The notes beneath the pieces were generated by a model, which was not told the origin of the DNA, did no database searches, and saw nothing but the letters and a program-made list of their open reading frames with translations. DNA of 64,000 bases from Chryseobacterium sp. GTDB taxonomy: Bacteria; Bacteroidota; Bacteroidia; Flavobacteriales; Weeksellaceae. This document shows, one piece after another, positions 28,761 to 42,290 of this stretch (the first letter of the stretch is position 1; each line of letters starts with the position of its first letter). The stretch is taken from the NCBI RefSeq assembly GCF_008831505.1, contig NZ_CP044507.1, positions 186,001-250,000 of the forward strand, given 5' to 3'. The translations under genes were made by a program, and so were the position numbers.

Positions 28761-29447
28761 CTATCTCACAAGATTGTTCTTTTTCAGCTGGTCCCCAAAT
28801 TCGCGCTGGAAACGGACGGCATCTGCCTGGAGCTGTTTCAGGAGTTCTGCCTGGTTAACGGGTTCGCGCAGGGAGCGTCCGCCATAGTTGGTGAAATACT
28901 GCCTGCCGTTGGCATTAGTTACCTCGTATATGGTAGCCTGCAAATTAGGTACTTCAATGCGTGATACCTGCATCATGTTCATTCCCGCAGTGCCACCCAG
29001 TGCTGTGAGGTCGTTCGCCAGTTCTTTGTTGCCCAGCTCACCCAATCGCCATCCTCCATCTGCCTGACTGGTGCCGATAACTGTTACCACGGCATTGTCC
29101 GCTACAAGTGGAGTGGAAAGGCGGCGCGAATCTTCCAGCATTGTGGCTATGGAGTCACGCTGGTTTTGTATTAGCCGTTCAAAGTTTAAGGTCATTTCCG
29201 GTACTGCCTTACCCGGCGCTGATCTTTCCAGTGCGGCTGCATCAATACCCAGGTTAAATTCCTTATAGTTCTTTACCAGTGATAACAGGTCATTTTTTCC
29301 TTTCATAACGGCCTCCTCAGAGGTTTTGAAGAGATTTTCCTTTACAGGCTGGTTACCGTCATTATTGTTCATGCCCGAATTTTTATTGCAGGACGTCAGC
29401 AAAAAAGTAAGCAGTCCGGCTAAAAGTATAAATATAGTATTTTTCAT
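28761..29447 (-). CDS. Lipoprotein of unknown function, partner of the papain-like lipoprotein
   Basis: 228 aa, not recognised. Signal peptide with lipobox LLTSC (lipidated C20), an Asn/Gly-rich linker (GMNNNDGN), then a mainly alpha/beta soluble domain with GTSQADGGWRLGELGNKEL in the middle and a helical Gln/Leu-rich end (ELLKQLQADAVRFQREF). It starts 17 nt after the stop of the papain-like lipoprotein gene, so the two are surely co-transcribed. It could be an inhibitor, substrate or partner of that enzyme, but nothing in the sequence proves it. Confidence 0.72.
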   Translation of the reverse strand: MKNTIFILLAGLLTFLLTSCNKNSGMNNNDGNQPVKENLFKTSEEAVMKGKNDLLSLVKNYKEFNLGIDAAALERSAPGKAVPEMTLNFERLIQNQRDSIATMLEDSRRLSTPLVADNAVVTVIGTSQADGGWRLGELGNKELANDLTALGGTAGMNMMQVSRIEVPNLQATIYEVTNANGRQYFTNYGGRSLREPVNQAELLKQLQADAVRFQREFGDQLKKNNLVR

Positions 29448-29464: not shown

Positions 29465-30058
29465 TTATTTCTTAGCGATATCGTACCAGGTAGACCAGTG
29501 TGTTGAAGTCCCGGGAGGGTTCTCGTATTCTTCATAGGTGATGAACCTTTCCTGGCCCGAGCAGGGTGCCCATGGATCGTTCAGGGCCAGATAGCGCGTA
29601 CCATTCAGGGTAATATATCCTTTTATCACAAGTACATGCCCTACAACACCGGGAGTGCCATAAGCGTAGCCCATAGGTTTTTTAGCACAGAAGATCTGTT
29701 TTTTCAGGGCATCCCAGCTAAGTGCGGTATTGGTTTCCGTGAATTTCAAACCTGCAAAATCCAGCTCCAGCCAGCCCGGCTTGTTGCACGCCGAGTTTTT
29801 TGGACAATTGCTCCCCTGATTCTGAGGTGTACAGCAGTTATTCATGCTGAATCGGTGATTGGCAAGGCTGCATTGTGTTACACTGATTGCAAAATGCTGG
29901 GCAAGCATTTGCGTGGTAGCCGCCCAGCACCAGTTGTTGGTTTCCTGCGGACGCAGAGTATTAGCCACATTACCGAGGGTTTCCGGTTTACAGCAGCTGC
30001 TTAGGATGAGCAGCAAGGCAAAAAATCCCATCAACGCGTTTTTGAAATCATTTTTCAT
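29465..30058 (-). CDS. Lipid-anchored papain-like (C39/C70-type) cysteine peptidase
   Basis: 197 aa. Signal peptide and lipobox-like LSSC (lipidation at C22). Probable catalytic residues are C44 in NNWCWAATTQM, H141 in GVVGHVLVIKGY and N160 in YLALNDPWAP, the order of papain-like folds of the C39/C70 type. About eight further cysteines (63, 75, 76, 85, 91, 124, 166 and C23) suggest disulfides and an extracytoplasmic location. It heads a two-gene operon with another lipoprotein. The substrate is unknown; peptide or isopeptide cleavage at the cell surface is plausible. Confidence 0.8.
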   Translation of the reverse strand: MKNDFKNALMGFFALLLILSSCCKPETLGNVANTLRPQETNNWCWAATTQMLAQHFAISVTQCSLANHRFSMNNCCTPQNQGSNCPKNSACNKPGWLELDFAGLKFTETNTALSWDALKKQIFCAKKPMGYAYGTPGVVGHVLVIKGYITLNGTRYLALNDPWAPCSGQERFITYEEYENPPGTSTHWSTWYDIAKK

Positions 30059-30259: not shown

Positions 30260-30643
30260 TTATCTGGTGCAGTTTGCAGTCCAGGTCTTACCGTCTTTTG
30301 TGTAGAATATATCCAGGTCGTTATTGTCAATCTTGATGTAACTGGTACCGGTTGATCCTACGCTTACGAGTGTATTGTCGCCGGTTTGCTGAAATTCTAT
30401 TCCGTTAAGGTCAGGAATTCCGTTCGAGAACTTGAAGTTGTACTTGGTTCCGCTCGCGATCTTTGTAACAAAGACTTTTCCGTCGGCAGTGTTAATGTTA
30501 TTGCTGCCGTCCACATAGGAGATACTGCCGTTATAAGTTCCGGCAAAGAAATCATTGTCTGCAGGATCATCATCGCGGCTGCACGATACAATTACGAATA
30601 GAGAAAGAATGAGGATGCCAAATGTTTTCAGGAGGTTTTTCAT
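30260..30643 (-). CDS. Small lipoprotein, lipocalin-like size, unknown function
   Basis: 127 aa. Lipobox VIVSC gives lipidated C21, followed by an acidic Ser-Arg-Asp-Asp-Asp linker and ~100 residues of alternating beta-strand sequence (FFAGTYNGSISYVDG, KYNFKFSNGIP, YIKIDNNDLDIFYTKDG). This fits a small beta-barrel or sandwich of the kind seen in many Bacteroidetes lipoproteins. It has its own terminator. No function is recognisable. Confidence 0.75.
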   Translation of the reverse strand: MKNLLKTFGILILSLFVIVSCSRDDDPADNDFFAGTYNGSISYVDGSNNINTADGKVFVTKIASGTKYNFKFSNGIPDLNGIEFQQTGDNTLVSVGSTGTSYIKIDNNDLDIFYTKDGKTWTANCTR

Positions 30644-30669: not shown

Positions 30670-30939
30670 TTATTTTGCTAGAGGATGGCGCGGAGGCCTT
30701 GGCGGTCTTGGTGGCGCGTCCGGTCTGCGGGGTCTATCTCCCGGATACAGTTTTTGTCCGTCCGGTGTGATAATATAAGGTCTTTCGCCCGGTTTTGGTG
30801 GTGCAGGTCTCGCCTTCTTCGCCTTTTTATTCTTAAGAAATTTAGGCAGCGGTGGCTTCGGAGGTTTGGGCGGCAGTTTTTGAGCCGATGTATATCCTAA
30901 ACCCAGTACGATAAGCATTGATGTCAGAATATTTTTCAT
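30670..30939 (-). CDS. Proline-rich small secreted protein
   Basis: 89 aa. Signal peptide (MKNILTSMLIVLGLGYTSAQ), then KLPPKPPKPPLPKF, a Lys-rich patch, the segment PYIITPDGQKLYPGD and a C-terminal Pro/Arg tail (PRRPDAPPRPPRPPRHP). The mature part is over 25% proline and strongly basic, so it is probably extended and may bind polyanions or the wall. It lies 26 nt upstream of the 127-aa lipoprotein gene on the same strand, a possible operon. Confidence 0.68.
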   Translation of the reverse strand: MKNILTSMLIVLGLGYTSAQKLPPKPPKPPLPKFLKNKKAKKARPAPPKPGERPYIITPDGQKLYPGDRPRRPDAPPRPPRPPRHPLAK

Positions 30940-31097: not shown

Positions 31098-34000
31098 ATG
31101 GAATTAAAAAACATCAGCGAAAGTTTACTCCCGGAACTTCTGCGGCTGAATTTCGGTGAAACACTTTTTTCAGAACTTGACAAAAACAGGGCGGTCACTG
31201 TAAAAGGATTTGCCGGCTCTGCACCATCTTTACTCGCTGCCGAATATTTTTTCGTACATAAGAAAAACCTCCTTTTCCTCGTGAATGACAAAGAAGAGGG
31301 ACTTTATATTACTGCCGAGATGGAAGAGCTGGTGGGTCAGGAGAACGTTCTCTATTTTCCACCGTCCTATCTTGAGCCTTATCAGGTGGAGAAAGTTCAG
31401 AATGCAAACCTTGTTTTAAGGACTGAAGTTCTGAATTCTCTGAGTTCATCGACTAAACCACGTGTAATTGTGGCCCCGTTTGCTGCACTGAGTGAGAAAG
31501 TACTTCAGCAGGAAGATTTCAAGGCGATAACGCATACGATAAAGGTGAGAGACCTTCTGGATTTTGATTTTATACTGGAGCTTCTGACTCAGTACGAATT
31601 TCATCAGACCGATTTTGTGTCGGAGCCCGGTGAATTTTCTGTACGAGGCGGGATTCTGGATGTCTTTTCATATTCGGCCGAACAGCCATACCGTATCACC
31701 TTTTTCGGAAGTGAAGTTGAAAGTATTAAGGTGTTTGATCTTGAAACCCAGCTTTCCAAATCGTCGGTTCCGGAGTTTCAGTTGGTGTCCAACATGAATT
31801 TCACGGCGTCCGGTACCAAGGTTTCCTTTTTCAGCCTGTTGCCTGCCGATTCTGTTGTTTTTTCAAAGGATGCCTACCTTGGCATTAAAAGGATCCGTGA
31901 CTTTTTTGCCAGGGCCGAGCAAAATTTCAGTGAACTCAGTACGGCTCTGAAACATAAGCCGCCGGCAGAACTTTTTATTTCTGAGACTGAACTTACCGAA
32001 AGGATAACCTCTTTCCCTGTTATCGATTTTACTGCACAACAAATCTTTACTTCCGGAGTATTCCAACTGAGCCAACAGCCGCAGCCGGTTTTCCACAAAA
32101 ACTTTGAGATGCTTGCGCGGGATCTGAAGGAAAAGAAGGAGATGGGATATCAAACCTGGATTTCCTTTTCATCGGAGAAGCAGATGGAGAGGCTTGAAAG
32201 CATTTTGGAAGAACTGAACCACGATGTATCATTCCGCCCATTTAAAAGTGAGCTTCACGCTGGCTTCGTGGATGCTGACCTAAAGGTTTCGGTATATACA
32301 GATCACCAGATATTTGACCGCTTTCAGCGCTTTAAAGCGAAAAATAACTTCGCGAAATCTGAACAGCTCACCCTCAAAGATCTTCTTTCCCTGAAGGTAG
32401 GTGATTATATTGCCCATATTGACCATGGAATTGGAAAATTCATGGGTCTGGTAAAGATAAACAACAACGGCAAAGTGCAGGAATGCTTTAAACTCGTATA
32501 CAAGAATCAGGATTTGCTCTATGTAAGTATTCATTCGCTGGATAAGATCTCCAAGTACAACGGCCCCGACGGCAAAGAGATCGTGTTGTCCAAACTGGGC
32601 TCGCCGGCCTGGAAATCCCTGAAGCAGAAAACCAAAGCCAAGGTAAAGCAGATCGCCTTTGACCTTATAAAACTTTATGCACAGCGGAAATCGGCCAAAG
32701 GATTCAGTTACGCACCTGATTCCTATCTTCAGAATGAGCTTGAAGCCAGCTTTATCTATGAGGATACGCCGGACCAGGAGAAAGCTACCCAGGATGTAAA
32801 GAAAGATATGGAGGCGCAAACCGTAATGGACCGTCTGGTTTGCGGAGATGTAGGTTTCGGTAAGACTGAGGTAGCCATCCGTGCCGCTTTCAAAGCAGCT
32901 ACCGACGGAAAGCAGGTGGCAATGCTTGTTCCTACGACCATCCTGGCTTTCCAGCACTACAGGAGTTTTCAGGAGAGGCTTAAAGATTTCCCGGTCGCAA
33001 TTTCCTACATGAACCGGTTCCGGACGGCCAAACAGAAAGCTGAGACACTGGCGGGTCTTAAGGACGGCAAAATCGATATTGTAATCGGGACGCATCAGTT
33101 GGTTTCGGATAAGGTTAAATTTAAAGACCTCGGTCTGCTGATTATTGACGAGGAACATAAATTCGGGGTATCTGTTAAGGATAAGCTAAAGACGATGAAG
33201 GCAAATGTGGATACCTTGACGCTTACAGCTACTCCGATTCCGCGGACCCTTCAGTTTTCCCTGATGGCTGCGAGGGATCTTTCTGTAATCAAGACTCCAC
33301 CACCAAACCGTCAACCTGTGGAAACTCATATTGTAGGTTTTGATGAAGAGCTGATCCGGGATGCGGTTTCCTATGAAATACAGCGGGACGGTCAGGTATT
33401 TTTCATCAATAACAGGATAGAGAATTTGAAGGATATTGCCGGACTCATCCAGAGGCTGGTGCCCGATGCTAAGGTGATCACCGGACACGGCCAGATGGAA
33501 GGCAAACAACTGGAACAAAATGTCCTGGATTTCATGAACGGTAAATATGATGTGCTGGTCTCCACCACAATCGTGGAAAGTGGGGTAGATGTTCCCAATG
33601 CCAATACCATCTTCATCAATGATGCGCAGCGTTTTGGGATGGCAGACCTGCATCAGATGCGCGGACGTGTAGGCCGGAGTAACCGCAAGGCATTCTGCTA
33701 CCTTATTACGCCACCGTTTGATATGGTAACCTCCGATGCACGCAAGCGGCTGGAGGCAATTGAGCAGTTTTCGGACCTGGGCAGCGGCTTCCAGATTGCC
33801 ATGAAGGATCTTGAGATCCGTGGTGCCGGTGATCTTTTGGGTGCCGAGCAAAGTGGATTCATTAACGAGATGGGTTTTGAGACTTACCAGAAAATCATGC
33901 AGGAAGCTCTGGAGGAACTCCAGCATAATGAAGAATTTGAAGATCTTTTTGAGAATGAAGAAGACCGCCGGAAACTGATCAGTGCCACTAAAGAGGTAAA

Positions 34001-34451
34001 TATTGACACAGACCTTGAGCTGATGCTGCCGGACAGCTACGTGCAGAGTACGGAAGAAAGACTGAGCCTGTACCAGAGACTCGCGGAAGTGAAGTCGGCC
34101 GCAGAACTGGCTGTATTTGAAAATGAACTGAAAGACAGGTTTGGTAATTTACCGCAGGAAGCCCGTAACCTCCTGAAGTCGGTTGAGCTGAAATGGCTTG
34201 CCGCTGAGGTTGGGTTTGACAAGTTAATAGTGAAGAACGGCGTATTCCTGGGTTACTTTCCGGCGAATCCGCAAGACAGGTTTTATCAGAGCGATAAATT
34301 CCGCCACATCATCACTTATCTGACTCAAAATCCGGCGGAGGCAACATTGAAGGAAAAGAGTACTAACGAGGGTACGCAGTTAATGATGCGAAAGGAAAAG
34401 GTTAAAAACGTAGATGAAGTAACTGCGGTATTGGAAAGAATTTTAAATTAA
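31098..34451 (+). CDS. mfd: Transcription-repair coupling factor
   Basis: ATP-dependent translocase that removes RNA polymerase stalled at DNA damage and recruits UvrA. 1117 aa, usual length. The N-terminal UvrB-homology part contains the GGILDVF segment near residue 184. The RNA-polymerase-interaction (CarD-like) domain is around residues 430-490 (GDYIAHIDHGIGKFMGL), with Walker A GDVGFGKT (583-590) and the DEEH box at 684-687. Motifs TLTATPIPRTLQFS and QMRGRVGRS follow. The C-terminal TRCF domain begins near residue 960. It lies apart from other repair genes. Confidence 0.97.
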   Translation: MELKNISESLLPELLRLNFGETLFSELDKNRAVTVKGFAGSAPSLLAAEYFFVHKKNLLFLVNDKEEGLYITAEMEELVGQENVLYFPPSYLEPYQVEKVQNANLVLRTEVLNSLSSSTKPRVIVAPFAALSEKVLQQEDFKAITHTIKVRDLLDFDFILELLTQYEFHQTDFVSEPGEFSVRGGILDVFSYSAEQPYRITFFGSEVESIKVFDLETQLSKSSVPEFQLVSNMNFTASGTKVSFFSLLPADSVVFSKDAYLGIKRIRDFFARAEQNFSELSTALKHKPPAELFISETELTERITSFPVIDFTAQQIFTSGVFQLSQQPQPVFHKNFEMLARDLKEKKEMGYQTWISFSSEKQMERLESILEELNHDVSFRPFKSELHAGFVDADLKVSVYTDHQIFDRFQRFKAKNNFAKSEQLTLKDLLSLKVGDYIAHIDHGIGKFMGLVKINNNGKVQECFKLVYKNQDLLYVSIHSLDKISKYNGPDGKEIVLSKLGSPAWKSLKQKTKAKVKQIAFDLIKLYAQRKSAKGFSYAPDSYLQNELEASFIYEDTPDQEKATQDVKKDMEAQTVMDRLVCGDVGFGKTEVAIRAAFKAATDGKQVAMLVPTTILAFQHYRSFQERLKDFPVAISYMNRFRTAKQKAETLAGLKDGKIDIVIGTHQLVSDKVKFKDLGLLIIDEEHKFGVSVKDKLKTMKANVDTLTLTATPIPRTLQFSLMAARDLSVIKTPPPNRQPVETHIVGFDEELIRDAVSYEIQRDGQVFFINNRIENLKDIAGLIQRLVPDAKVITGHGQMEGKQLEQNVLDFMNGKYDVLVSTTIVESGVDVPNANTIFINDAQRFGMADLHQMRGRVGRSNRKAFCYLITPPFDMVTSDARKRLEAIEQFSDLGSGFQIAMKDLEIRGAGDLLGAEQSGFINEMGFETYQKIMQEALEELQHNEEFEDLFENEEDRRKLISATKEVNIDTDLELMLPDSYVQSTEERLSLYQRLAEVKSAAELAVFENELKDRFGNLPQEARNLLKSVELKWLAAEVGFDKLIVKNGVFLGYFPANPQDRFYQSDKFRHIITYLTQNPAEATLKEKSTNEGTQLMMRKEKVKNVDEVTAVLERILN

Positions 34452-34487: not shown

Positions 34488-34495
34488 TAGATTTG
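34488..34495 (+). promoter_or_regulatory. Putative -7 element of lipoprotein array gene 1
   Basis: TAGATTTG, 17 nt before the ATG at 34513. Array gene 1 is thus probably transcribed separately from mfd. Confidence 0.5.
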
Positions 34496-34512: not shown

Positions 34513-35370
34513 ATGAAAAAATATTTACTCTGGTTCGTCAGTTTCCCGCTGCTTGGTTTAATTCTCTCCTGTGTGCCGCCTGATCCTGCCATGGTGTACG
34601 GATGGAACACCAATACGCCTGCAGGAATTACCGGTCCGCGAATCCTCCATAAGATAGACAGTGCCAATGTGACACGTAAAGAATATGTATCATCGCCCTC
34701 GGGCGTACTGGAAACTGTAAAATATTATGATACCGATGACGTAATTAAACTTTTTTACAACAGCAATAATAAAGTCAGCAAAATGACGCTTACTGACCCG
34801 GACATGTCAATGGACCTCAATTTTTCATATAACAGCGCAAATAAGATCACCAATGCGGTTATGACTACCAAAATGAATAACAGCAATCAGACGGTGATGG
34901 AAGAGACTCATTACTGGCTGGTATACAATAATATTGGTCAGCTAATTAAGGCAGACTGGAAAAGCAAGCTCTTTCCTTCAATAACAGGACCTTTCACTCA
35001 TTACGGTGTCATCAACCTCACCTGGGTTGGTGATAATATTGTAAAGGTAATGCAGAACAATTCAGGCATTATTCACCCGGACGGGAGCATGGAGCCGCTG
35101 GATCCTATGGCCTCAATGGTTTATAAATTTGAGGATTACGATAACAAGATAAATCCATACACTACATTACCCGCAGAATTCAATATTGGAATGGGTATTC
35201 TGGCACCGCTCACCTTTTTCCAGTGCAGTTACAATAATCATCAGAAACTGCAGATGGAATTTTTAAACATGCCGGTAACCACCTATGGAAATTATATCTA
35301 TGACACCCAGAATTATCCCGTGTCAGATGTCAGCGGAGTTACGAAATATATCTACAAGCCGGTACAGTAA
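34513..35370 (+). CDS. Tandem lipoprotein family, member 1 of 4
   Basis: 285 aa. Lipobox LILSC (C20), then VPPDPAMVYGW. The body has strand repeats of YD-like type (FYNSNNKVSKMTLTD, FSYNSANKITN). Family markers shared with the next three genes are the DNKINPYTTLP segment and the C-terminal YIYDTQNYPVSDVSG...YKP. It is close to member 2 in its N-terminal YGW/YGF...GITGPRILHKI start. Function unknown; a surface or periplasmic lipid-anchored protein is inferred. Confidence 0.75.
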   Translation: MKKYLLWFVSFPLLGLILSCVPPDPAMVYGWNTNTPAGITGPRILHKIDSANVTRKEYVSSPSGVLETVKYYDTDDVIKLFYNSNNKVSKMTLTDPDMSMDLNFSYNSANKITNAVMTTKMNNSNQTVMEETHYWLVYNNIGQLIKADWKSKLFPSITGPFTHYGVINLTWVGDNIVKVMQNNSGIIHPDGSMEPLDPMASMVYKFEDYDNKINPYTTLPAEFNIGMGILAPLTFFQCSYNNHQKLQMEFLNMPVTTYGNYIYDTQNYPVSDVSGVTKYIYKPVQ

Positions 35371-35438
35371 CGGAAAAGTAATTTAATATAGCTGAAGGCG
35401 CATTTAGGTGCGGGGTCGGAAACTTTAACATCAAATTA

Positions 35439-35470
35439 TTGCCTTATCTTCAGAAAAAAAAGTAGTTTTG
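35439..35470 (+). promoter_or_regulatory. Putative promoter of lipoprotein array gene 2
   Basis: TTG (35439-35441) and TAGTTTTG (35463-35470) with a 21-bp spacer; the ATG is 28 nt downstream. Confidence 0.6.
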
Positions 35471-35498
35471 TATGTTATAAAAATTATAAAATTTTAAT

Positions 35499-36377
35499 AT
35501 GAAGAGAATATTACAATTTTTCAGTCTGATAATAGGTCTGGCCGTATTTAACTCCTGTGCGGAATCTGATCCTGCCGCAGTGTATGGTTTTGAGGATCCC
35601 AATGACATTTCGGGACCCCGTATGATCAGAAAGGTAAGTGATAATAACCGGACAGTGGAAGAATATGAACCCAATAACGGCAAGCTTTTCAAGGTAGTGC
35701 GCAATGCTTATACGGGTACTGCTCTGCAGGAGAACCAGAGTATTATCCTTTATTATCTTGGTAACAGGATTTCCAAGATGGAAATCATAACCACTGTTCC
35801 AAGTGGTCCGGGCACCGGCCGCCACGTACTGATCCCCAATTATGACAATACAACCGGAAGAATGGTAAGTCTGATGAATGATTTCTATGTGGGAAATACG
35901 CATACGAACCATTCAATAAGTATATTCAATTATGACGGCACAGGCAGGGTAATAAACGCTTACAAGAAGACAGCTGCGGTAAACCCAGCTACTCCTAATG
36001 TGTATGTATATCCGAACACGGTTACAGATGCCATTACCTACGACGGTCCAAATGTTGCCAAGGTGGAATCAAGCAAAAATGTCCTGGACATCAATACGGG
36101 AGTTATTACCAGCAGTGTGAAGAACACCTACGAATATGTGAATTATGACTGGCGGAATAATCCTTACCTGGGCATTTCAGACAATTATATTATCAATATC
36201 GCCAGTGTGTTTCCGGAAATGTACGCTTATATGTCCGACAATAACCCTGCGAAACTGAAGTTCACATCCGGTTCTGCACCAATGGTTGAAACGGTTTATT
36301 CCTATAAATTTGATACGCATAACTATCCTGTGACTAACGGCTTCAGGTCCTTCACCTACCAGCCGGCACCGCAGTGA
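35499..36377 (+). CDS. Tandem lipoprotein family, member 2 of 4
   Basis: 292 aa. Lipobox VFNSC (C20), then AESDPAAVYGFEDPNDISGPRMIRKV, closely parallel to member 1 (DPAMVYGW...TGPRILHKI). The middle carries YYLGNRISKMEI-type strands. The NNPYLG segment and the C-terminal YKFDTHNYPVTNG...TYQP match the family pattern. It has its own promoter. Function unknown. Confidence 0.75.
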   Translation: MKRILQFFSLIIGLAVFNSCAESDPAAVYGFEDPNDISGPRMIRKVSDNNRTVEEYEPNNGKLFKVVRNAYTGTALQENQSIILYYLGNRISKMEIITTVPSGPGTGRHVLIPNYDNTTGRMVSLMNDFYVGNTHTNHSISIFNYDGTGRVINAYKKTAAVNPATPNVYVYPNTVTDAITYDGPNVAKVESSKNVLDINTGVITSSVKNTYEYVNYDWRNNPYLGISDNYIINIASVFPEMYAYMSDNNPAKLKFTSGSAPMVETVYSYKFDTHNYPVTNGFRSFTYQPAPQ

Positions 36378-36451
36378 TAGCATGGGTCTGCCTGAAATTC
36401 ATGCATACCGCACTGCCGCATTATAAATCATAAAAATACAAACAACCGAAA

Positions 36452-37333
36452 ATGAAAAATATATTATATCTATTTGTATCGCTATTCCTTGTCCTGTCTG
36501 TTCAGTCGTGTAAACGTATGGGCGATGACGACGGAAACCTTCTGAACGATATGGATTACAATCAGGGAGGTATAGGTGAAGACCGTTTCTTTTATCAGGA
36601 GGTAACCTCAGCCGATACGATTGCCGGATATCACTACAACGGCAGAAAGCTTGTGAAAGTAGTAGGTAACAATACGGTAACCAACATCAGTTATTCCGGA
36701 GACCAGATTAATAAGATTGACTTTACCGGAGTGGTAGCAGGCGACAGTATAATCTACGCTCAGCTGTTTAACTATGATCCAAATAATAATACAAAGCTTT
36801 CAACAATAACTGAAACCAAAACTGTTTATCCTAACATTGCAGCACAAACGGCACCTCTGGTATTCCAGAAATCCAGAGCCCTGTATTCTGTTAAATTTAA
36901 TGCAAACTCAAAACTGGATTCAGTAATTATCCGGAGAGGAAATGAAGTACCTGCCCAGAATTTTGTATTTACATCTTACCAGAAGTCGGCTTATCAGTAT
37001 GATACGCTATGGAACGTTACTAAAGTGACCAACACCTACGGTAATGTGGTTGGGAATGTCCTGGGTGCCGCAATGGTTACTGAGTCTTATGACTTCTCTA
37101 ACTTTGATGATAAAAGAAGCCCATACTCGCTTCTTCCTTTCGGGTACCTGCTTCACAAAACATTTGAAAACTCATTCAACTCTTACCGGTTTTCTGTGAA
37201 TAATCCAAAGCGCGTAATGTACACAAGTGACGCAATCCCATTGCCTGTTCTGTATAACACCTTGTATACGTATGATAAGCTTGGGTATGCCGTATCTGGT
37301 TGGGGATCCAATTATGAATACCGGCCTTTCTAA
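36452..37333 (+). CDS. Tandem lipoprotein family, member 3 of 4
   Basis: 293 aa. Lipobox SVQSC (C20), a short acidic linker, then strands such as YHYNGRKLVKVVGNN and ISYSGDQINKIDF. Family markers: DDKRSPYSLLPFGY and C-terminal YTYDKLGYAVSGWGSNYEYRP. It lies 74 nt after member 2 and is followed by a clear terminator (37352-37385), so members 2 and 3 may share a transcript. Function unknown. Confidence 0.75.
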   Translation: MKNILYLFVSLFLVLSVQSCKRMGDDDGNLLNDMDYNQGGIGEDRFFYQEVTSADTIAGYHYNGRKLVKVVGNNTVTNISYSGDQINKIDFTGVVAGDSIIYAQLFNYDPNNNTKLSTITETKTVYPNIAAQTAPLVFQKSRALYSVKFNANSKLDSVIIRRGNEVPAQNFVFTSYQKSAYQYDTLWNVTKVTNTYGNVVGNVLGAAMVTESYDFSNFDDKRSPYSLLPFGYLLHKTFENSFNSYRFSVNNPKRVMYTSDAIPLPVLYNTLYTYDKLGYAVSGWGSNYEYRPF

Positions 37334-37351
37334 AACTGAAACTTTAACTAC

Positions 37352-37385
37352 GGGAAATGTAACTGCATTTCCCTTTTATTTTTAT
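37352..37385 (+). terminator. Terminator after lipoprotein array gene 3
   Basis: GGGAAATG (37352-37359) pairs with CATTTCCC (37366-37373) with loop TAACTG; T-rich tail. It lies only 8 nt before the next ATG. Confidence 0.82.
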
Positions 37386-37392
37386 TAAAATT

Positions 37393-38241
37393 ATGATGAC
37401 GGGAAAATTTAAGCAATTAGGTATTTCATTGGCAGCAGTCCTAGCGGTAACCTCATGTGCCGATTCATCGGGAGATTTAGTAGGTCTGGAAAACACCCTG
37501 CCCAATTACACCGAGGTGAAAGTTTTAAGCAAAGTAAATATTGCGGAAGCTGGTGCCACTCCGTACGATATAAATTATCTGTACAGCAGCGGAAAGCTTA
37601 CTGCAGTAACTGCCAATAATAACTCAGCCTCTTACACTTTGGAATACAGTGGCACCCAGATTTCCAAAATCATTAAAACTGATATGCAGGGCACGCAGCC
37701 TCAGGTTATTACTTCAATACTCAGCTACAGCGGCAACGTGCTTACACAGATCACCGGTACCATTACAGACGCGGGTACGGTTTCCGGTACGTTCAAATCG
37801 GACCTGGTTTATACCGGTGCTAAACCCAGTCAGATTAAGACCACACTTTATCTGCCAGGCTCAACCGTTGAGGCGGGAAAGCTGACATCAGACCTGGAAT
37901 ATTCAGGTAACAATCTTTCCAAATGGGTTTACAGCGCTGAAGTAAGCGCCGGTCCGGTGGTGGTTTCTCCTGTACAGTTTACTGCCACATTCAGTAATTA
38001 CGACGGTAATACCAATCCTTACCGTACACTGCCGTTTGCCTTTACAGTTGCAACAGCAAATTTTGATATAGACGGTGCCGGTCCTACTGGTCTTTCATCC
38101 AACAATTATCAAACGGTTACCATACAGACGGGAGCAACCTCACAGTCTGAGACTCGGACACATACCGTGGGTACAGCCGGATTCGTCACTAAAACCCAGT
38201 CACCTTCCGCAGCTTGGACTTTTGATTATCAGAATCTTTAA
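37393..38241 (+). CDS. Tandem lipoprotein family, member 4 of 4 (most divergent)
   Basis: 282 aa. Lipobox AVTSC (C22), then strand repeats (INYLYSSGKLTAVTANN, LEYSGTQISKIIK, LVYTGAKPSQIKT, LEYSGNNLSKWVY) and the family segment NYDGNTNPYRTLPFAF. The C-terminal YD motif is degenerate. The start ATG lies directly beyond the terminator of member 3, so either read-through or a promoter inside the upstream gene must supply transcription. Followed by its own terminator. Function unknown. Confidence 0.74.
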   Translation: MMTGKFKQLGISLAAVLAVTSCADSSGDLVGLENTLPNYTEVKVLSKVNIAEAGATPYDINYLYSSGKLTAVTANNNSASYTLEYSGTQISKIIKTDMQGTQPQVITSILSYSGNVLTQITGTITDAGTVSGTFKSDLVYTGAKPSQIKTTLYLPGSTVEAGKLTSDLEYSGNNLSKWVYSAEVSAGPVVVSPVQFTATFSNYDGNTNPYRTLPFAFTVATANFDIDGAGPTGLSSNNYQTVTIQTGATSQSETRTHTVGTAGFVTKTQSPSAAWTFDYQNL

Positions 38242-38263: not shown

Positions 38264-38291
38264 CTCAACTTCGCCGAAGTTGGGATTTTTT
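38264..38291 (+). terminator. Terminator after lipoprotein array gene 4
   Basis: CTCAACTT (38264-38271) pairs with AAGTTGGG (38277-38284, one G-T pair), followed by ATTTTTTAT. It overlaps the predicted -33 of pth. Confidence 0.8.
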
Positions 38292-38311
38292 ATACATAAA
38301 AATTACTTTTG
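38280..38311 (+). promoter_or_regulatory. Putative promoter of pth
   Basis: TTG (38280-38282) and TACTTTTG (38304-38311) with a 21-bp spacer. The ATG at 38324 is 12 nt downstream. Confidence 0.6.
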
Positions 38312-38323
38312 CAAACTATAAAA

Positions 38324-38896
38324 ATGAAGGTCGTGAAATATTTGATTGTAGGACTGGGAAACAAAGGAGAGGAATACGCAGAAACGCGCCATAATATAGG
38401 TTTTAAAGTTGCAGAGAAGATTGCTGCAACCATTGAGGCTCCCTTTAAATCTGCTAACTTTGGCTGGCTGGCGGAAGGAAAATACAAAGGGCGCAAAGTC
38501 TTTATCCTGAAACCGGATACCTATATGAATCTGTCCGGTAATGCAGTGAAATACTGGCTGCAGAAAGAAAATATTCCGCTGGAGAATCTTTTGGTCGTTA
38601 CTGATGATCTGGCACTGCCCTTTGGCACACTGCGCATGAAAATGAAAGGATCCGACGCTGGCCACAACGGTCTTAAGAGTATACAGGAAAAACTTCAGAC
38701 GCAGAATTATCCTCGTTTACGCTTTGGAATCTCTGCGGATTTTTCAGAAGGGAAGCAGGTGGACTACGTTCTTGGGAGATGGGAGGAAAGTGAAAAAGAA
38801 AAACTTCCCGATCTAATCGGAAAGTTTTCTAATGCCTGTCTCTCATTTGTATTTGCCGGCATACAGAATACAATGACCGCCTTTAACGGTAAATAG
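38324..38896 (+). CDS. pth: Peptidyl-tRNA hydrolase
   Basis: Releases tRNA from peptidyl-tRNA dropped by ribosomes. 190 aa. Family motifs are VGLGNKGEEYAETRHNIGF near the N-terminus (with the catalytic His in TRHNIGF), KPDTYMNLSG, VVTDDLALPFG and GSDAGHNGLKSI. ATG 38324 is chosen because the longer frame begins at a TTG within the -7 box. It converges with a carbonic anhydrase gene, with 3 nt between stop codons. Confidence 0.96.
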   Translation: MKVVKYLIVGLGNKGEEYAETRHNIGFKVAEKIAATIEAPFKSANFGWLAEGKYKGRKVFILKPDTYMNLSGNAVKYWLQKENIPLENLLVVTDDLALPFGTLRMKMKGSDAGHNGLKSIQEKLQTQNYPRLRFGISADFSEGKQVDYVLGRWEESEKEKLPDLIGKFSNACLSFVFAGIQNTMTAFNGK

Positions 38897-38899
38897 AAG

Positions 38900-39535
38900 T
38901 TAAAGCCAGGTTACAACTCCGCTTTCTACACAGTAGTTGGCACCAACGATCTTAATGCTGCCTTCCTTTTCCAGATTTCTCAGCGTCTCACTTTGCGCCC
39001 GAATCTGGGAAATCGTACGCTTAATATTGCATACATTAAGCCTTTCAAGCAGATCTTCATTCGAGGAAGACCTTTCTTCTCCCTCGTTGATTACTTCATT
39101 AATGCATTCTTCGAAGTTGCCGATGAGGTGATTCAGGTTTTCCATGCCTAAACCTTCAACTTTTCGGGCGTCCAGACCACCTTTCAGGGCACCGCATTTA
39201 CTGTGTCCCAGTACGACTACGAGTTTGGAACCGGCTACATTGCAGGCAAACTCCATCGAACCCAAGATATCGCGGTTCACGAAGTTTCCGGCAATACGAA
39301 TGCTGAAAATATCGCCCAGGCCCTGGTCGAAAATAAGTTCGGCAGATGTACGGCTGTCAATGCAACTCAGAATGGCCGCAAAAGGCCACTGCCCGGCACG
39401 GGTGTCATTAACCTGCTCCAGTAGGTTACGGTTTACTTTAAGGTTCTGTACAAAGCGCTGGTTGCCTTCCTGCAGGAAAGTAAGTGCTTTTTCCGGGGTA
39501 GTTGTGGTTTGGGTTTCTAAAGTATGTGCTTTCAT
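38900..39535 (-). CDS. Beta-class carbonic anhydrase (1)
   Basis: Reversible hydration of CO2 to bicarbonate. 211 aa. The zinc ligands are visible as C58, H111 and C114, with the Asp60-Arg62 dyad (LSCIDSRTS and LGHSKCGAL). No signal peptide is evident, so cytoplasmic. It lies 30 nt after a SulP transporter gene on the same strand and is the last gene of the inorganic-carbon cluster. Confidence 0.94.
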   Translation of the reverse strand: MKAHTLETQTTTTPEKALTFLQEGNQRFVQNLKVNRNLLEQVNDTRAGQWPFAAILSCIDSRTSAELIFDQGLGDIFSIRIAGNFVNRDILGSMEFACNVAGSKLVVVLGHSKCGALKGGLDARKVEGLGMENLNHLIGNFEECINEVINEGEERSSSNEDLLERLNVCNIKRTISQIRAQSETLRNLEKEGSIKIVGANYCVESGVVTWL

Positions 39536-39565
39536 TAATTTTTATTGTAGGTTGTTATTCTTGAA

Positions 39566-41158
39566 TTAAATTGCTCTGCGGTGTGCGATAATGATGTGTG
39601 AATCCTGATCTTCCGCATATTCTTTGTAAGAGGTTTTAAATCCAAGCAGATTGACCTCTATGTCTTCTTCCTTTGCTCGGATGTTGGCAAATTCCTGTAT
39701 CATTTCCAGTATATCGGTTGCGATATAGGAAGTAGACCGTGCATCGATGCAAACCTTAGAATTAGGTTTCACATTTTTAAGTGTTTTTTTAATTGCCGCT
39801 TTGTTCAGGAAGGAAACTTCTTCGGCCAGTTTAATATTGATCTCATCGGCATCATTAAGCTGTTCGCGGCTCAGGTAGTATGCTCTTTTCATATTTCCCT
39901 GAAGGATGTAGAATACCGAGATCAGCAGACCAATACCGACTCCCTTAAGCAGATCCAGTGATACAACTGCAATAATCGTGGCAATAAAAGGAATAAACTG
40001 ATATTTACCTTTCTTCCAGAAATGCATAATGGTCGCAGGCTTGGCCAGTTTATAACCAATGAGGATCAGAACTGCCGCCAGTGTAGAGAGCGGAATAAGG
40101 TTCAGTATGAACGGGATGGTAAGGACAGAAACCAAAAGCAGCCCGCCGTGAATCATTGTTGACAGTTTGGAAGTTGCACCTGCATTCGCATTGGCAGAAC
40201 TTCTTACTACAACGGAGGTCATTGGCAATCCTCCGATAAGCGAGGAAAGCAGGTTACCGATGCCCTGTGCCCGCAGTTCACGGTTAGTATCGGTAATTCT
40301 TCTGTGCGAGTCCAGTCTGTCTGAAGCTTCAATACATAGAAGGGTCTCGATGGATGCCACTATCGCGATTGTAGCTCCAACTACCCATACCTGTACATTC
40401 AGGAACCCACTGAATGCTGGAAATACAAGCATCCCGCGGAAATCGTCCAGACTTTTTGGCACGGGCAGAGATACCAAATGTTCAGATCCGATAGCCAGGC
40501 TGCTGCCGGTAACGGTGAATAAATAATTAAGAAGTATTCCGGACACCACAGCAACGAGGGCCCCGGGAATCATCTTTATTTTCTTCAGCGCCGGAACATT
40601 ATCCCAGGCCAAAAGGATTGCTACCGAAACAAGTGTCACTATTACAGCACCCGGATGAATTCCACCTGCCATTGCTGCCAGTGAGTTCAGGCTGAATCCG
40701 TCAGCTCCCAAAACAGAATCTGTAAATCCGCTTTCAAAGCCAAATGCGTTTGGAATTTGTGTTATGATGATGATGATACCAATACCCGCCAGCATTCCCT
40801 CAATCACATTAGTTGGGAAATAGTTGGAAATACTTCCTGCGCGCAGGAAGCCGAGTAGAAGTTGCAGAAGCCCGGCTATTAACCCGGCACACAGAAACAG
40901 CTCAAAGCTGCCCAGGCCGGTAATAGCGGTAAGTACAATGGCAGTCAGTCCTGCCGCGGGTCCCGATACGGATATATTTGAATTACTTAGAAATCCTACC
41001 ACCAGGCCACCTATGATACCGGCTATGATTCCTGATAACGGCGGTGCGCCGGAAGCCAGTGCAATGCCGAGGCATAGCGGTAAGGCTACAAGAAAGACTA
41101 CGAGTCCTGAAGGGAAATTCTCTTTTATCCCTCCATATAATGATTTTGCTTTTTTCAT
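39566..41158 (-). CDS. SulP-family anion (probably bicarbonate) transporter with STAS domain
   Basis: 530 aa inner-membrane transporter. About 12-14 helices (residues ~10-410) include SNSNISVSGPAAGLTAIV and the signature GLPMTSVVVRSSANANAGATSK; a C-terminal STAS-like domain (~residues 440-530, SKVCIDARSTSYIATDILEMI) ends the protein. SulP proteins carry sulfate, bicarbonate or other anions; two flanking carbonic anhydrases favour bicarbonate here, an inference from context. The start is ATG 41158 (MKKAKSLYGG); the longer frame begins at TTG. Confidence 0.9.
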   Translation of the reverse strand: MKKAKSLYGGIKENFPSGLVVFLVALPLCLGIALASGAPPLSGIIAGIIGGLVVGFLSNSNISVSGPAAGLTAIVLTAITGLGSFELFLCAGLIAGLLQLLLGFLRAGSISNYFPTNVIEGMLAGIGIIIIITQIPNAFGFESGFTDSVLGADGFSLNSLAAMAGGIHPGAVIVTLVSVAILLAWDNVPALKKIKMIPGALVAVVSGILLNYLFTVTGSSLAIGSEHLVSLPVPKSLDDFRGMLVFPAFSGFLNVQVWVVGATIAIVASIETLLCIEASDRLDSHRRITDTNRELRAQGIGNLLSSLIGGLPMTSVVVRSSANANAGATSKLSTMIHGGLLLVSVLTIPFILNLIPLSTLAAVLILIGYKLAKPATIMHFWKKGKYQFIPFIATIIAVVSLDLLKGVGIGLLISVFYILQGNMKRAYYLSREQLNDADEINIKLAEEVSFLNKAAIKKTLKNVKPNSKVCIDARSTSYIATDILEMIQEFANIRAKEEDIEVNLLGFKTSYKEYAEDQDSHIIIAHRRAI

Positions 41159-41283
41159 TTTTTGGTAAAGTGTTGAGCATCCGTTTAACAGATAAACAGT
41201 GCAGATTGAAAATTTAAAAAAGTGCACAGCATTGCTGTCCTGAATATCAATATCCTGGTCAGTTTACATGTGAAAATACTTCG

Positions 41284-41574
41284 TTAAAGTTCCGGAGGGG
41301 GAGAAAAAATGGAGAGAAAGGGGGACAGATGTACCGAATCATCTGCTAAGTGGAAAGATTTGCTAAGCAAATCTGTTCCGAACTTCAGGAAATCATTTAT
41401 ATTTAAAGTATTCGGTATTGTTTTCTCGTGCAGTACCAATGGTCCGTGCTGGGTTTCTTCTTCAGAGACCATAACAGTTGAAACCGGAATATCCCAACCC
41501 AATGTGACAGCCATACTGGGTAAGACCATAAAGTTGAGAAAAATCGCTAATGTGATTAGACTCCAGATCCGCAT
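41284..41574 (-). CDS. Small secreted protein inside the carbonic anhydrase/SulP operon
   Basis: 96 aa from ATG 41574, or 103 aa from TTG 41595, which would overlap the upstream stop region. The N-terminus is a signal-peptide-like hydrophobic stretch (SLITLAIFLNFMVLPSMA), followed by a short soluble part with EEETQHGPLVLHE, helical INDFLKFGTDLL, and a C-terminal hydrophobic end (FLSIFSPPPEL). Not recognised. It is placed between a carbonic anhydrase and the SulP gene, so a role in inorganic-carbon handling is possible but unproven. Confidence 0.6.
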   Translation of the reverse strand: MRIWSLITLAIFLNFMVLPSMAVTLGWDIPVSTVMVSEEETQHGPLVLHEKTIPNTLNINDFLKFGTDLLSKSFHLADDSVHLSPFLSIFSPPPEL

Positions 41575-41587
41575 CGGTAAAGACTTT

Positions 41588-42271
41588 TTAATCAATGAAG
41601 TTCCTGTTTTTTTTCCTGCTCATCACCCAGTCGGAGTTCGTCAGGTTATATATTTTCTGAATATCCTTAAGGATACTCTCAAAATCAATTTCCTGGTCAA
41701 TTATCCTGCCTGTCTTCAGGTCAAAGACCCAACCGTGTACGATTGGATATTCATCTACGAGATACTGTTCCTGCACGACGGCCATTTTTATGACGTTGAT
41801 GCACTGTTCCTGCACATTAAGCTCTACCAGTCGGTTATAACGTGCTTGTTCGTCAGAAATCTGATCCAGTTCCGACTGGTGCAGCCGGTAAACATCCCGG
41901 ATATTGCGCAGCCAGGGGTTCAGCAGTCCCAGATCTTCCGAAGTCATTGCAGCCTTTACACCGCCACAGCCATAATGTCCGCAAACAATAATATGCTTAA
42001 CTTTTAAATGCTCTACCGCGTACTGAATCACCGCTGTAGAATTCATATCCAGGGTGTTAACCAAATTAGCCACATTTCGGGTTACGAAAACCTCACCTGG
42101 TTTCATACCCATCATTTCCTCGGCTGAAACCCTGCTGTCCGAACACCCAATATATAAATATTCCGGGCTTTGTGTTTCAGCAAGTGTCCTGAAAAAATCA
42201 GGATTTTCGGCAACCTTGCGCTCAACCCATTTACGGTTATTCTCGAAGATAGCGTCGTATGATTTGCCCAT
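41588..42271 (-). CDS. Beta-class carbonic anhydrase (2)
   Basis: 227 aa from ATG 42271 (MGKSYDAIF); the longer frame begins at TTG. Zinc ligands C43, H99 and C102 with Asp45-Arg47 are visible in IGCSDSRVS and VCGHYGCGG. The GCSDSR form and the C-terminal WVFDLKTGRIID match the Can-type cytoplasmic enzyme. It is the first gene of the cluster and has a -7 box 19 nt upstream. Confidence 0.95.
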   Translation of the reverse strand: MGKSYDAIFENNRKWVERKVAENPDFFRTLAETQSPEYLYIGCSDSRVSAEEMMGMKPGEVFVTRNVANLVNTLDMNSTAVIQYAVEHLKVKHIIVCGHYGCGGVKAAMTSEDLGLLNPWLRNIRDVYRLHQSELDQISDEQARYNRLVELNVQEQCINVIKMAVVQEQYLVDEYPIVHGWVFDLKTGRIIDQEIDFESILKDIQKIYNLTNSDWVMSRKKNRNFID

Positions 42272-42290
42272 AAGCAATGATTCAATATTA

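What the first reader, a model, noticed from the sequence alone, without database searches (positions are those of the whole stretch)
34513..38241. Array of four paralogous lipoproteins of unknown function after mfd
Four consecutive genes of 282-293 aa each have a lipobox Cys at residue 20 or 22, YD-like beta-strand repeats, a shared (N/S)PYxxLP-type segment and, in three, a C-terminal Y-x-(Y/F)D...Y-x-V motif. Members 1 and 2 share the start DPAxVYG...GPRxxxK(I/V), so the array grew by duplication. Separate promoters and terminators suggest independent expression, as for variable surface proteins. I know no function for this family.
Basis: partly seen in the sequence, partly recalled or inferred. 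Interest (0 to 1): 0.6.

Follow-up and report, generated by a model that had tools for sequence, protein, structure and literature searches.

The report
Ancient lipoprotein paralogues between mfd and pth
Four neighbouring genes encode related outer-membrane lipoproteins with one shared fold; they are an old, stable gene set kept at one chromosomal spot across a bacterial family, not a fast-changing surface-antigen array, and their function is still unknown.

Summary
Four lipoprotein genes (285, 292, 293 and 282 aa) lie head to tail between mfd and pth and are homologous: profile-profile probabilities are 97-99.8% for five of six pairs and 60% for LP2-LP4, against at most 0.3% for column-shuffled controls.

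The array arose by duplication, but long ago. The tree gives four orthologous lineages, LP1 to LP4, in the same order in the window genus and two others. A member of the family sits next to pth in 37 genomes of 15 genera of the same family (Weeksellaceae), with 1-4 copies; five genomes have mfd next to pth and no such gene. In lineages that keep only the LP4 type, the gene nearly abuts pth (-1 to 17 nt). Loops are no more variable than strands, and no repeats suggest switching. This is a stable set, not variable surface antigens.

AlphaFold models (pLDDT about 88-90) of LP3 and LP4 have the same topology. Foldseek finds the Bacteroides 'porin-like' structures 3TZG and 4GHB, and Rhs/teneurin YD shells. 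All lie below Pfam and NCBIfam cut-offs. I found no published function. Best guess: outer-membrane-anchored binding or scaffold proteins with an aromatic interior, subfunctionalised. Fold and history are well supported; the role is inferred.

The parts
31098..34451 (+). mfd, transcription-repair coupling factor; left boundary of the conserved locus
   Evidence: TIGR00580, 974 bits against cut-off 800; upstream of the LP genes in most fetched loci
34488..34495 (+). TAGATTTG, possible -7 element of LP1 (no matching -33 TTG)
   Evidence: pattern scan; weak
34513..35370 (+). LP1, lipoprotein, Cys20, 285 aa
   Evidence: ORF; alignment; orthologs in the same place in G004, G035, G053, G012, G024
35439..35470 (+). 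promoter-like TTG-N21-TAGTTTTG upstream of LP2
   Evidence: same layout as upstream of pth, found independently as direct repeat D2
35499..36377 (+). LP2, lipoprotein, Cys20, 292 aa
   Evidence: ORF; ortholog tree
36452..37333 (+). LP3, lipoprotein, Cys20, 293 aa; slowest-changing member (92% to nearest relative)
   Evidence: ORF; identities; AlphaFold pLDDT 89.9
37352..37373 (+). terminator-like hairpin after LP3
   Evidence: 9 pairs followed by TTTTATTTTT
37393..38241 (+). LP4, lipoprotein, Cys22, 282 aa; closest to the single-copy gene of most other genera
   Evidence: ORF; tree; hhalign LP4 vs single-copy group 100%; AlphaFold pLDDT 87.8
38266..38282 (.). terminator-like hairpin after LP4 (CAACTTCGCCGAAGTTG, then GGATTTTTT on +)
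38280..38311 (+). promoter-like TTG-N21-TACTTTTG of pth
38327..38896 (+). pth, peptidyl-tRNA hydrolase; right boundary of the locus (ATG at 38327 fits homologs better than the listed TTG at 38309)
   Evidence: TIGR00447, 181 bits against cut-off 100

Best explanation
LP1-LP4 are paralogous outer-membrane lipoproteins of a family specific to Weeksellaceae, fixed between mfd and pth. Shown: they are homologous, arose by old tandem duplication, and evolve as four separate orthologous lines with gene loss. Shown by prediction: after the lipidated Cys and a flexible linker of about 20 residues, the mature protein is one long antiparallel beta meander of YD/Rhs type, interrupted near its end by a short helical insert carrying the conserved D-x-K-x-(N/S)P(Y/F)..LP and S-x-NN motifs, like the Bacteroides 'porin-like' proteins BVU_2266 and BACUNI_01323. 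Inferred: they are soluble domains tethered to the outer membrane, not pores. One strand face is aromatic and conserved, the other polar and variable, so the sheet curls round an aromatic interior that is either a packed core or a ligand site. They most likely bind something (a glycan, lipid or partner envelope protein), and the four copies have divided this task. In lineages with only the LP4 type the gene is probably cotranscribed with pth, which suggests constitutive, housekeeping-level expression.
For: Homology. Tree with four ortholog lines in fixed order. mfd-LP-pth synteny. LP-pth spacing of -1 to 17 nt in 19 of 21 single-copy loci outside Chryseobacterium. AlphaFold models of LP3 and LP4 with matching strand/helix order. 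Foldseek to 3TZG (E 6.6e-5 and 1.6e-6, TM by target 0.58-0.62), 4GHB (1.5e-3), and Rhs/teneurin shells. One aromatic face per strand, mostly the lower-entropy one. Profile link to other Bacteroidota lipoproteins, probability 99.1.
Against: TM-scores of 0.5-0.6 are moderate. No ligand or experimental function is known for any relative, and no paper was found. The binding role is an inference from an aromatic face, which may be only a hydrophobic core. The location (surface or periplasm) is not settled, and outer-membrane rather than inner-membrane anchoring is assumed from what is usual for lipoproteins of this phylum.
Confidence: 0.5

Rival explanations
1. A variable surface-antigen array: paralogs exposed on the cell surface, switched or diversified to escape immunity, phages or predators.
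For: Tandem paralogs; LP1 and LP4 change faster (65% and 75% to the nearest species, where mfd is 93% and pth 90%); LP2 has its own promoter-like motif.
Against: Four old orthologous lines in fixed order; four copies in each of four genomes of the genus; loop entropy 2.00 is not above strand entropy 2.36; only short diverged repeats; +2 to +6 after Cys does not match the published lipoprotein export signal K-(D/E)2 or Q-A-(D/E)2 (PMC5080379).
Confidence: 0.1
2. The aromatic interior is only a packed core; the lipoproteins are structural or accessory subunits of an outer-membrane complex (for example envelope assembly or secretion), recognising a partner protein by the conserved helical insert.
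For: The most conserved non-aromatic residues (N188, D219, P224, P229, S248, N250, N251 of LP3) mostly cluster around the helical insert; paralogs could be subunits.
Against: No conserved partner gene other than mfd and pth and the nearby transporter pair was seen; the family is absent at the empty site in some relatives, so it is not essential to the phylum's core machines.
Confidence: 0.3
3. Real porins: the beta meander closes as a membrane-spanning barrel, as the PDB titles 'porin-like' suggest.
For: Best solved matches are titled porin-like; all-antiparallel meander.
Against: Lipoprotein signal with a flexible linker; the variable strand face is on average polar, not lipid-facing hydrophobic; Foldseek also matches soluble Rhs/teneurin shells.
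Confidence: 0.05

Closest known systems
BVU_2266 (PDB 3TZG; Pfam PF22054 BVU_2266-like)
   Same: Best solved full-length fold match to both modelled members.
   Different: Sequence identity 9-13%; no member passes the Pfam cut-off (one member at E 0.045); no hit to PF22054 in this genome.
DUF4595 'with porin-like fold' (Pfam PF15283); BACUNI_01323 (PDB 4GHB)
   Same: 4GHB is a fold match to LP3 (E 1.5e-3); a distant relative (L151) matches DUF4595 below cut-off.
   Different: No LP and nothing in this genome matches DUF4595. That 4GHB belongs to DUF4595 is from memory, not tested.
RHS/YD repeats (PF05593, TIGR01643) and Rhs/teneurin shells
   Same: YD-type strand-turn-strand units; weak RHS_repeat hits in 5 of 64 members (best 1.9e-5); Foldseek hits with E down to 1.7e-6.
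   Different: Small single-domain lipoprotein of under 300 aa, against shells of over 1000 residues in the Rhs matches; TM by query only 0.1-0.3; no toxin domain.
Unnamed Bacteroidota lipoproteins of 250-290 aa with YDxKxNP and YxYDxxxYP motifs (L141-L151)
   Same: Profile-profile probability 99.1 over 229 columns; same motif order.
   Different: Scattered loci in other families of the order and class; their own neighbours were not examined, but mfd and pth lie far apart or on different contigs in the five such genomes checked.

Membership tests
Bacterial lipoprotein (type II signal peptide) | N-terminal hydrophobic signal with lipobox and Cys | tested here: met
   Cys invariant in 62-64 rows, at residue 20-22 of the window proteins
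Surface-exposed Bacteroidota lipoprotein | Lipoprotein export signal after Cys: K-(D/E)2 or Q-A-(D/E)2 (Capnocytophaga), SDDDD (B. fragilis), SDDFE (F. johnsoniae) | tested here: not met
   +2 onward VPPDPA, AESDPA, KRMGDDD, ADSSGD against PMC5080379; the genus's own signal is unknown
DUF4595 (PF15283) | Pfam score over the gathering cut-off | tested here: not met
BVU_2266-like (PF22054) | Pfam score over the gathering cut-off | tested here: not met
   one of 64 members at E 0.045; none in own genome
BVU_2266-like (PF22054) | Shared fold | tested here: met
   Foldseek probability 1.00, TM by target 0.55-0.62
RHS/YD repeat proteins | RHS_repeat match over cut-off | tested here: inconclusive
   none in the window proteins; weak in 5 of 64 relatives
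Variable or phase-variable surface protein array | Switching sequences, recombining repeats, hypervariable loops or unstable copy number | tested here: not met
Porin | Channel activity and membrane-spanning barrel | not testable with these tools
   needs bilayer conductance; strand-face polarity speaks against it

The most novel reading that the evidence does not exclude
The YDxKxNPY-SxNN-YxYD lipoproteins form one phylum-wide, still unnamed class of outer-membrane binding proteins on an Rhs-type shell, and the mfd-pth locus is a Weeksellaceae site where one such gene expanded into four subfunctionalised receptors with housekeeping expression.
Probability: 0.25. Interest if true: 0.5.

Novelty: new member of a known kind. 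Interest (0 to 1): 0.3.

Why it matters
Bacteroidota envelopes are full of lipoproteins of unknown role. Here is a group kept in one place over 15 genera as ancient paralogs, with confident models and a fold link to solved structures for which I found no paper. It gives a tractable case for finding out what this fold does, and lets annotators name a family now called hypothetical. It also warns against reading tandem lipoprotein arrays as antigenic variation without a tree.

Tried and rejected
Pfam, NCBIfam, PHROGs and PDB sequence searches with the four proteins (PDB: LP1 alone) gave nothing above cut-off; the family profile against PDB sequences gave only weak matches. The 127-aa lipoprotein at 30260-30643 and the 228-aa one at 28761-29447 match the family profile weakly and chiefly by their N-terminal part, so they are not counted as members. 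L064 (G070) is probably the MbnP hit and was dropped from the tree; L067 is a long branch and doubtful. DUF4595 and BVU_2266-like searches across the class gave too few members for a profile-profile test. The search for a genome-specific export signal from SusD proteins gave too few N-termini. The first genome-contig query, the four window proteins together, was too divergent to seed. Literature searches for the fold and locus found nothing relevant.

Full report
Observation. The four ORFs, their lipobox Cys residues, the shared NPYxxLP-like segment, the C-terminal YxYD motif and the common start of members 1 and 2 are all present. Between mfd (TIGR00580) and pth (TIGR00447) I see no other gene on +. 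The four window sequences alone align at 18-28% identity to the first. Profiles built from the orthologs of each remove most doubt: five of six pairs reach hhalign probability 97-99.8, LP2-LP4 reaches 60, and column-shuffled controls stay at or below 0.3. Signal peptides were cut off before this test.

Distribution and age. A profile of the four finds matches in 57 of 120 genomes of the same family; a few weak ones are spurious (L064 is probably an MbnP protein). In 37 genomes of 15 genera the gene sits immediately before pth, in most with mfd upstream within the stretch read (my count from its listing). Named records show these to be Weeksellaceae: Chryseobacterium, Kaistella, Frigoriflavimonas and others. 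In five genomes (G010, G017, G022, G023, G027) mfd and pth lie about 20-155 bases apart with no such gene, and in most other relatives checked the two genes are not neighbours. The tree has four ortholog lines. The window genus (four genomes), G012 and G024 each hold all four in the order LP1-LP2-LP3-LP4; G047, of the same genus as G024, also holds four, but its first gene branches apart from the LP1 line. Chryseobacterium keeps an LP1/LP2-type gene plus LP3, or LP3 alone; most other genera keep one gene of the LP4 line. Duplication therefore predates the genera and was followed by loss. I cannot say whether the ancestral state was one gene or several.

Rate. To the nearest relative (G035) LP1 is 65% identical, LP2 83, LP3 92, LP4 75, against mfd 93 and pth 90. 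LP3 is as constrained as a housekeeping gene at that distance; LP1 and LP4 are faster. Column entropy is not higher in loops than in strands, in the whole family (2.00 against 2.36 bits) or among LP3 types (1.34 against 1.33). Repeats in the array are short and diverged, as expected of old paralogs. These facts speak against antigenic variation.

Expression. The flavobacterial promoter form TTG-N(17-23)-TAnnTTTG (from general knowledge) occurs upstream of LP2 and of pth, both with a 21-base spacer. The same pattern occurs 11 times on both strands of the 64-kb window, so two within these few hundred intergenic bases is unlikely by chance; AT-rich intergenic sequence raises the chance somewhat. 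The two sites also came out as a 79% direct repeat. LP1 has only the core, LP3 and LP4 none. Hairpins with T-runs follow LP3 and LP4. A reading consistent with this: LP1 alone or by read-through from mfd, LP2-LP3 together, LP4 weakly after a terminator, pth separately. In single-copy loci outside Chryseobacterium the gene lies -1 to 17 nt from pth in 19 of 21 cases, whereas most multi-copy loci and Chryseobacterium LP3-only loci have 76-139 nt. So in many genera this lipoprotein gene and pth are probably one operon.

Fold. AlphaFold with 62 window and relative sequences gave mean pLDDT 89.9 for LP3 and 87.8 for LP4, with the same order of strands, helical insert and final strands; the residues after the Cys up to about 40 are of low confidence. 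Foldseek against PDB gives for LP4 first 3TZG (BVU_2266, 'porin-like', E 1.6e-6, TM by target 0.62) and for LP3 an Rhs effector shell (1.7e-6, low TM) and 3TZG (6.6e-5, TM by target 0.58), then 4GHB and more Rhs or teneurin shells. Sequence profiles agree: distant Bacteroidota lipoproteins found join with probability 99.1, and several of those carry RHS_repeat matches above cut-off or a sub-threshold DUF4595 match. That comparison kept the signal peptides, but the aligned region runs to the C-terminus. LP1 and LP2 were not modelled; their fold is inferred from homology.

Mechanism. One face of the strands is aromatic and mostly more conserved, the other polar and variable, as expected of a soluble sheet with an aromatic interior and not of a membrane barrel. 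The strongest conserved non-aromatic residues (D219, P224, P229, S248, N250, N251) lie around the helical insert, N188 at a strand start. I infer an outer-membrane-anchored binding or scaffold protein and rate ligand binding and partner binding as near rivals. The published lipoprotein export signals are not matched (PMC5080379), but the signal of this genus is unknown, so surface exposure stays open. No coordinates were available to inspect the interior directly.

Verdict. A real, stable, lineage-specific paralog set on a known, functionally uncharacterised fold. It is a new member of a known kind, of moderate interest.

Noticed in passing
L083:2494-4881 (also L088, L099): In Chryseobacterium three tandem secreted proteins of 245-279 aa starting ...QVGI(N/G/S)T...LDVNGD lie between mfd and the lipoproteins; another paralog array at the same site.
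   Followed up: partly
window 38900-42277 (-): A SulP-type transporter (39566-41227) lies between two carbonic-anhydrase-like genes (38900-39535; 41588-42277 by eye); the first and the transporter follow pth in many relatives, suggesting a bicarbonate uptake pair.
   Followed up: partly
window 29465-30058 (-): Lipoprotein whose sequence (NNWCWAA...GHVLVIKGY...NDP) looks by eye like a papain-fold or C39-like cysteine peptidase; no NCBIfam hit.
   Followed up: no
window 30260-30643 (-): Small lipoprotein with CSRDDD after the lipobox, close to the published surface export signal; relatives lie upstream of mfd in several genomes.
   Followed up: partly
window 30670-30939 (-): 89-aa secreted proline/lysine-rich protein (PPKPPKPPLPKF...PPRPPRPPRH).
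   Followed up: no
L044:6516-8235 and L048:7302-9102: Two-copy loci in distant genera (G014, G025) with long branches; whether they are independent duplications is unresolved.
   Followed up: no
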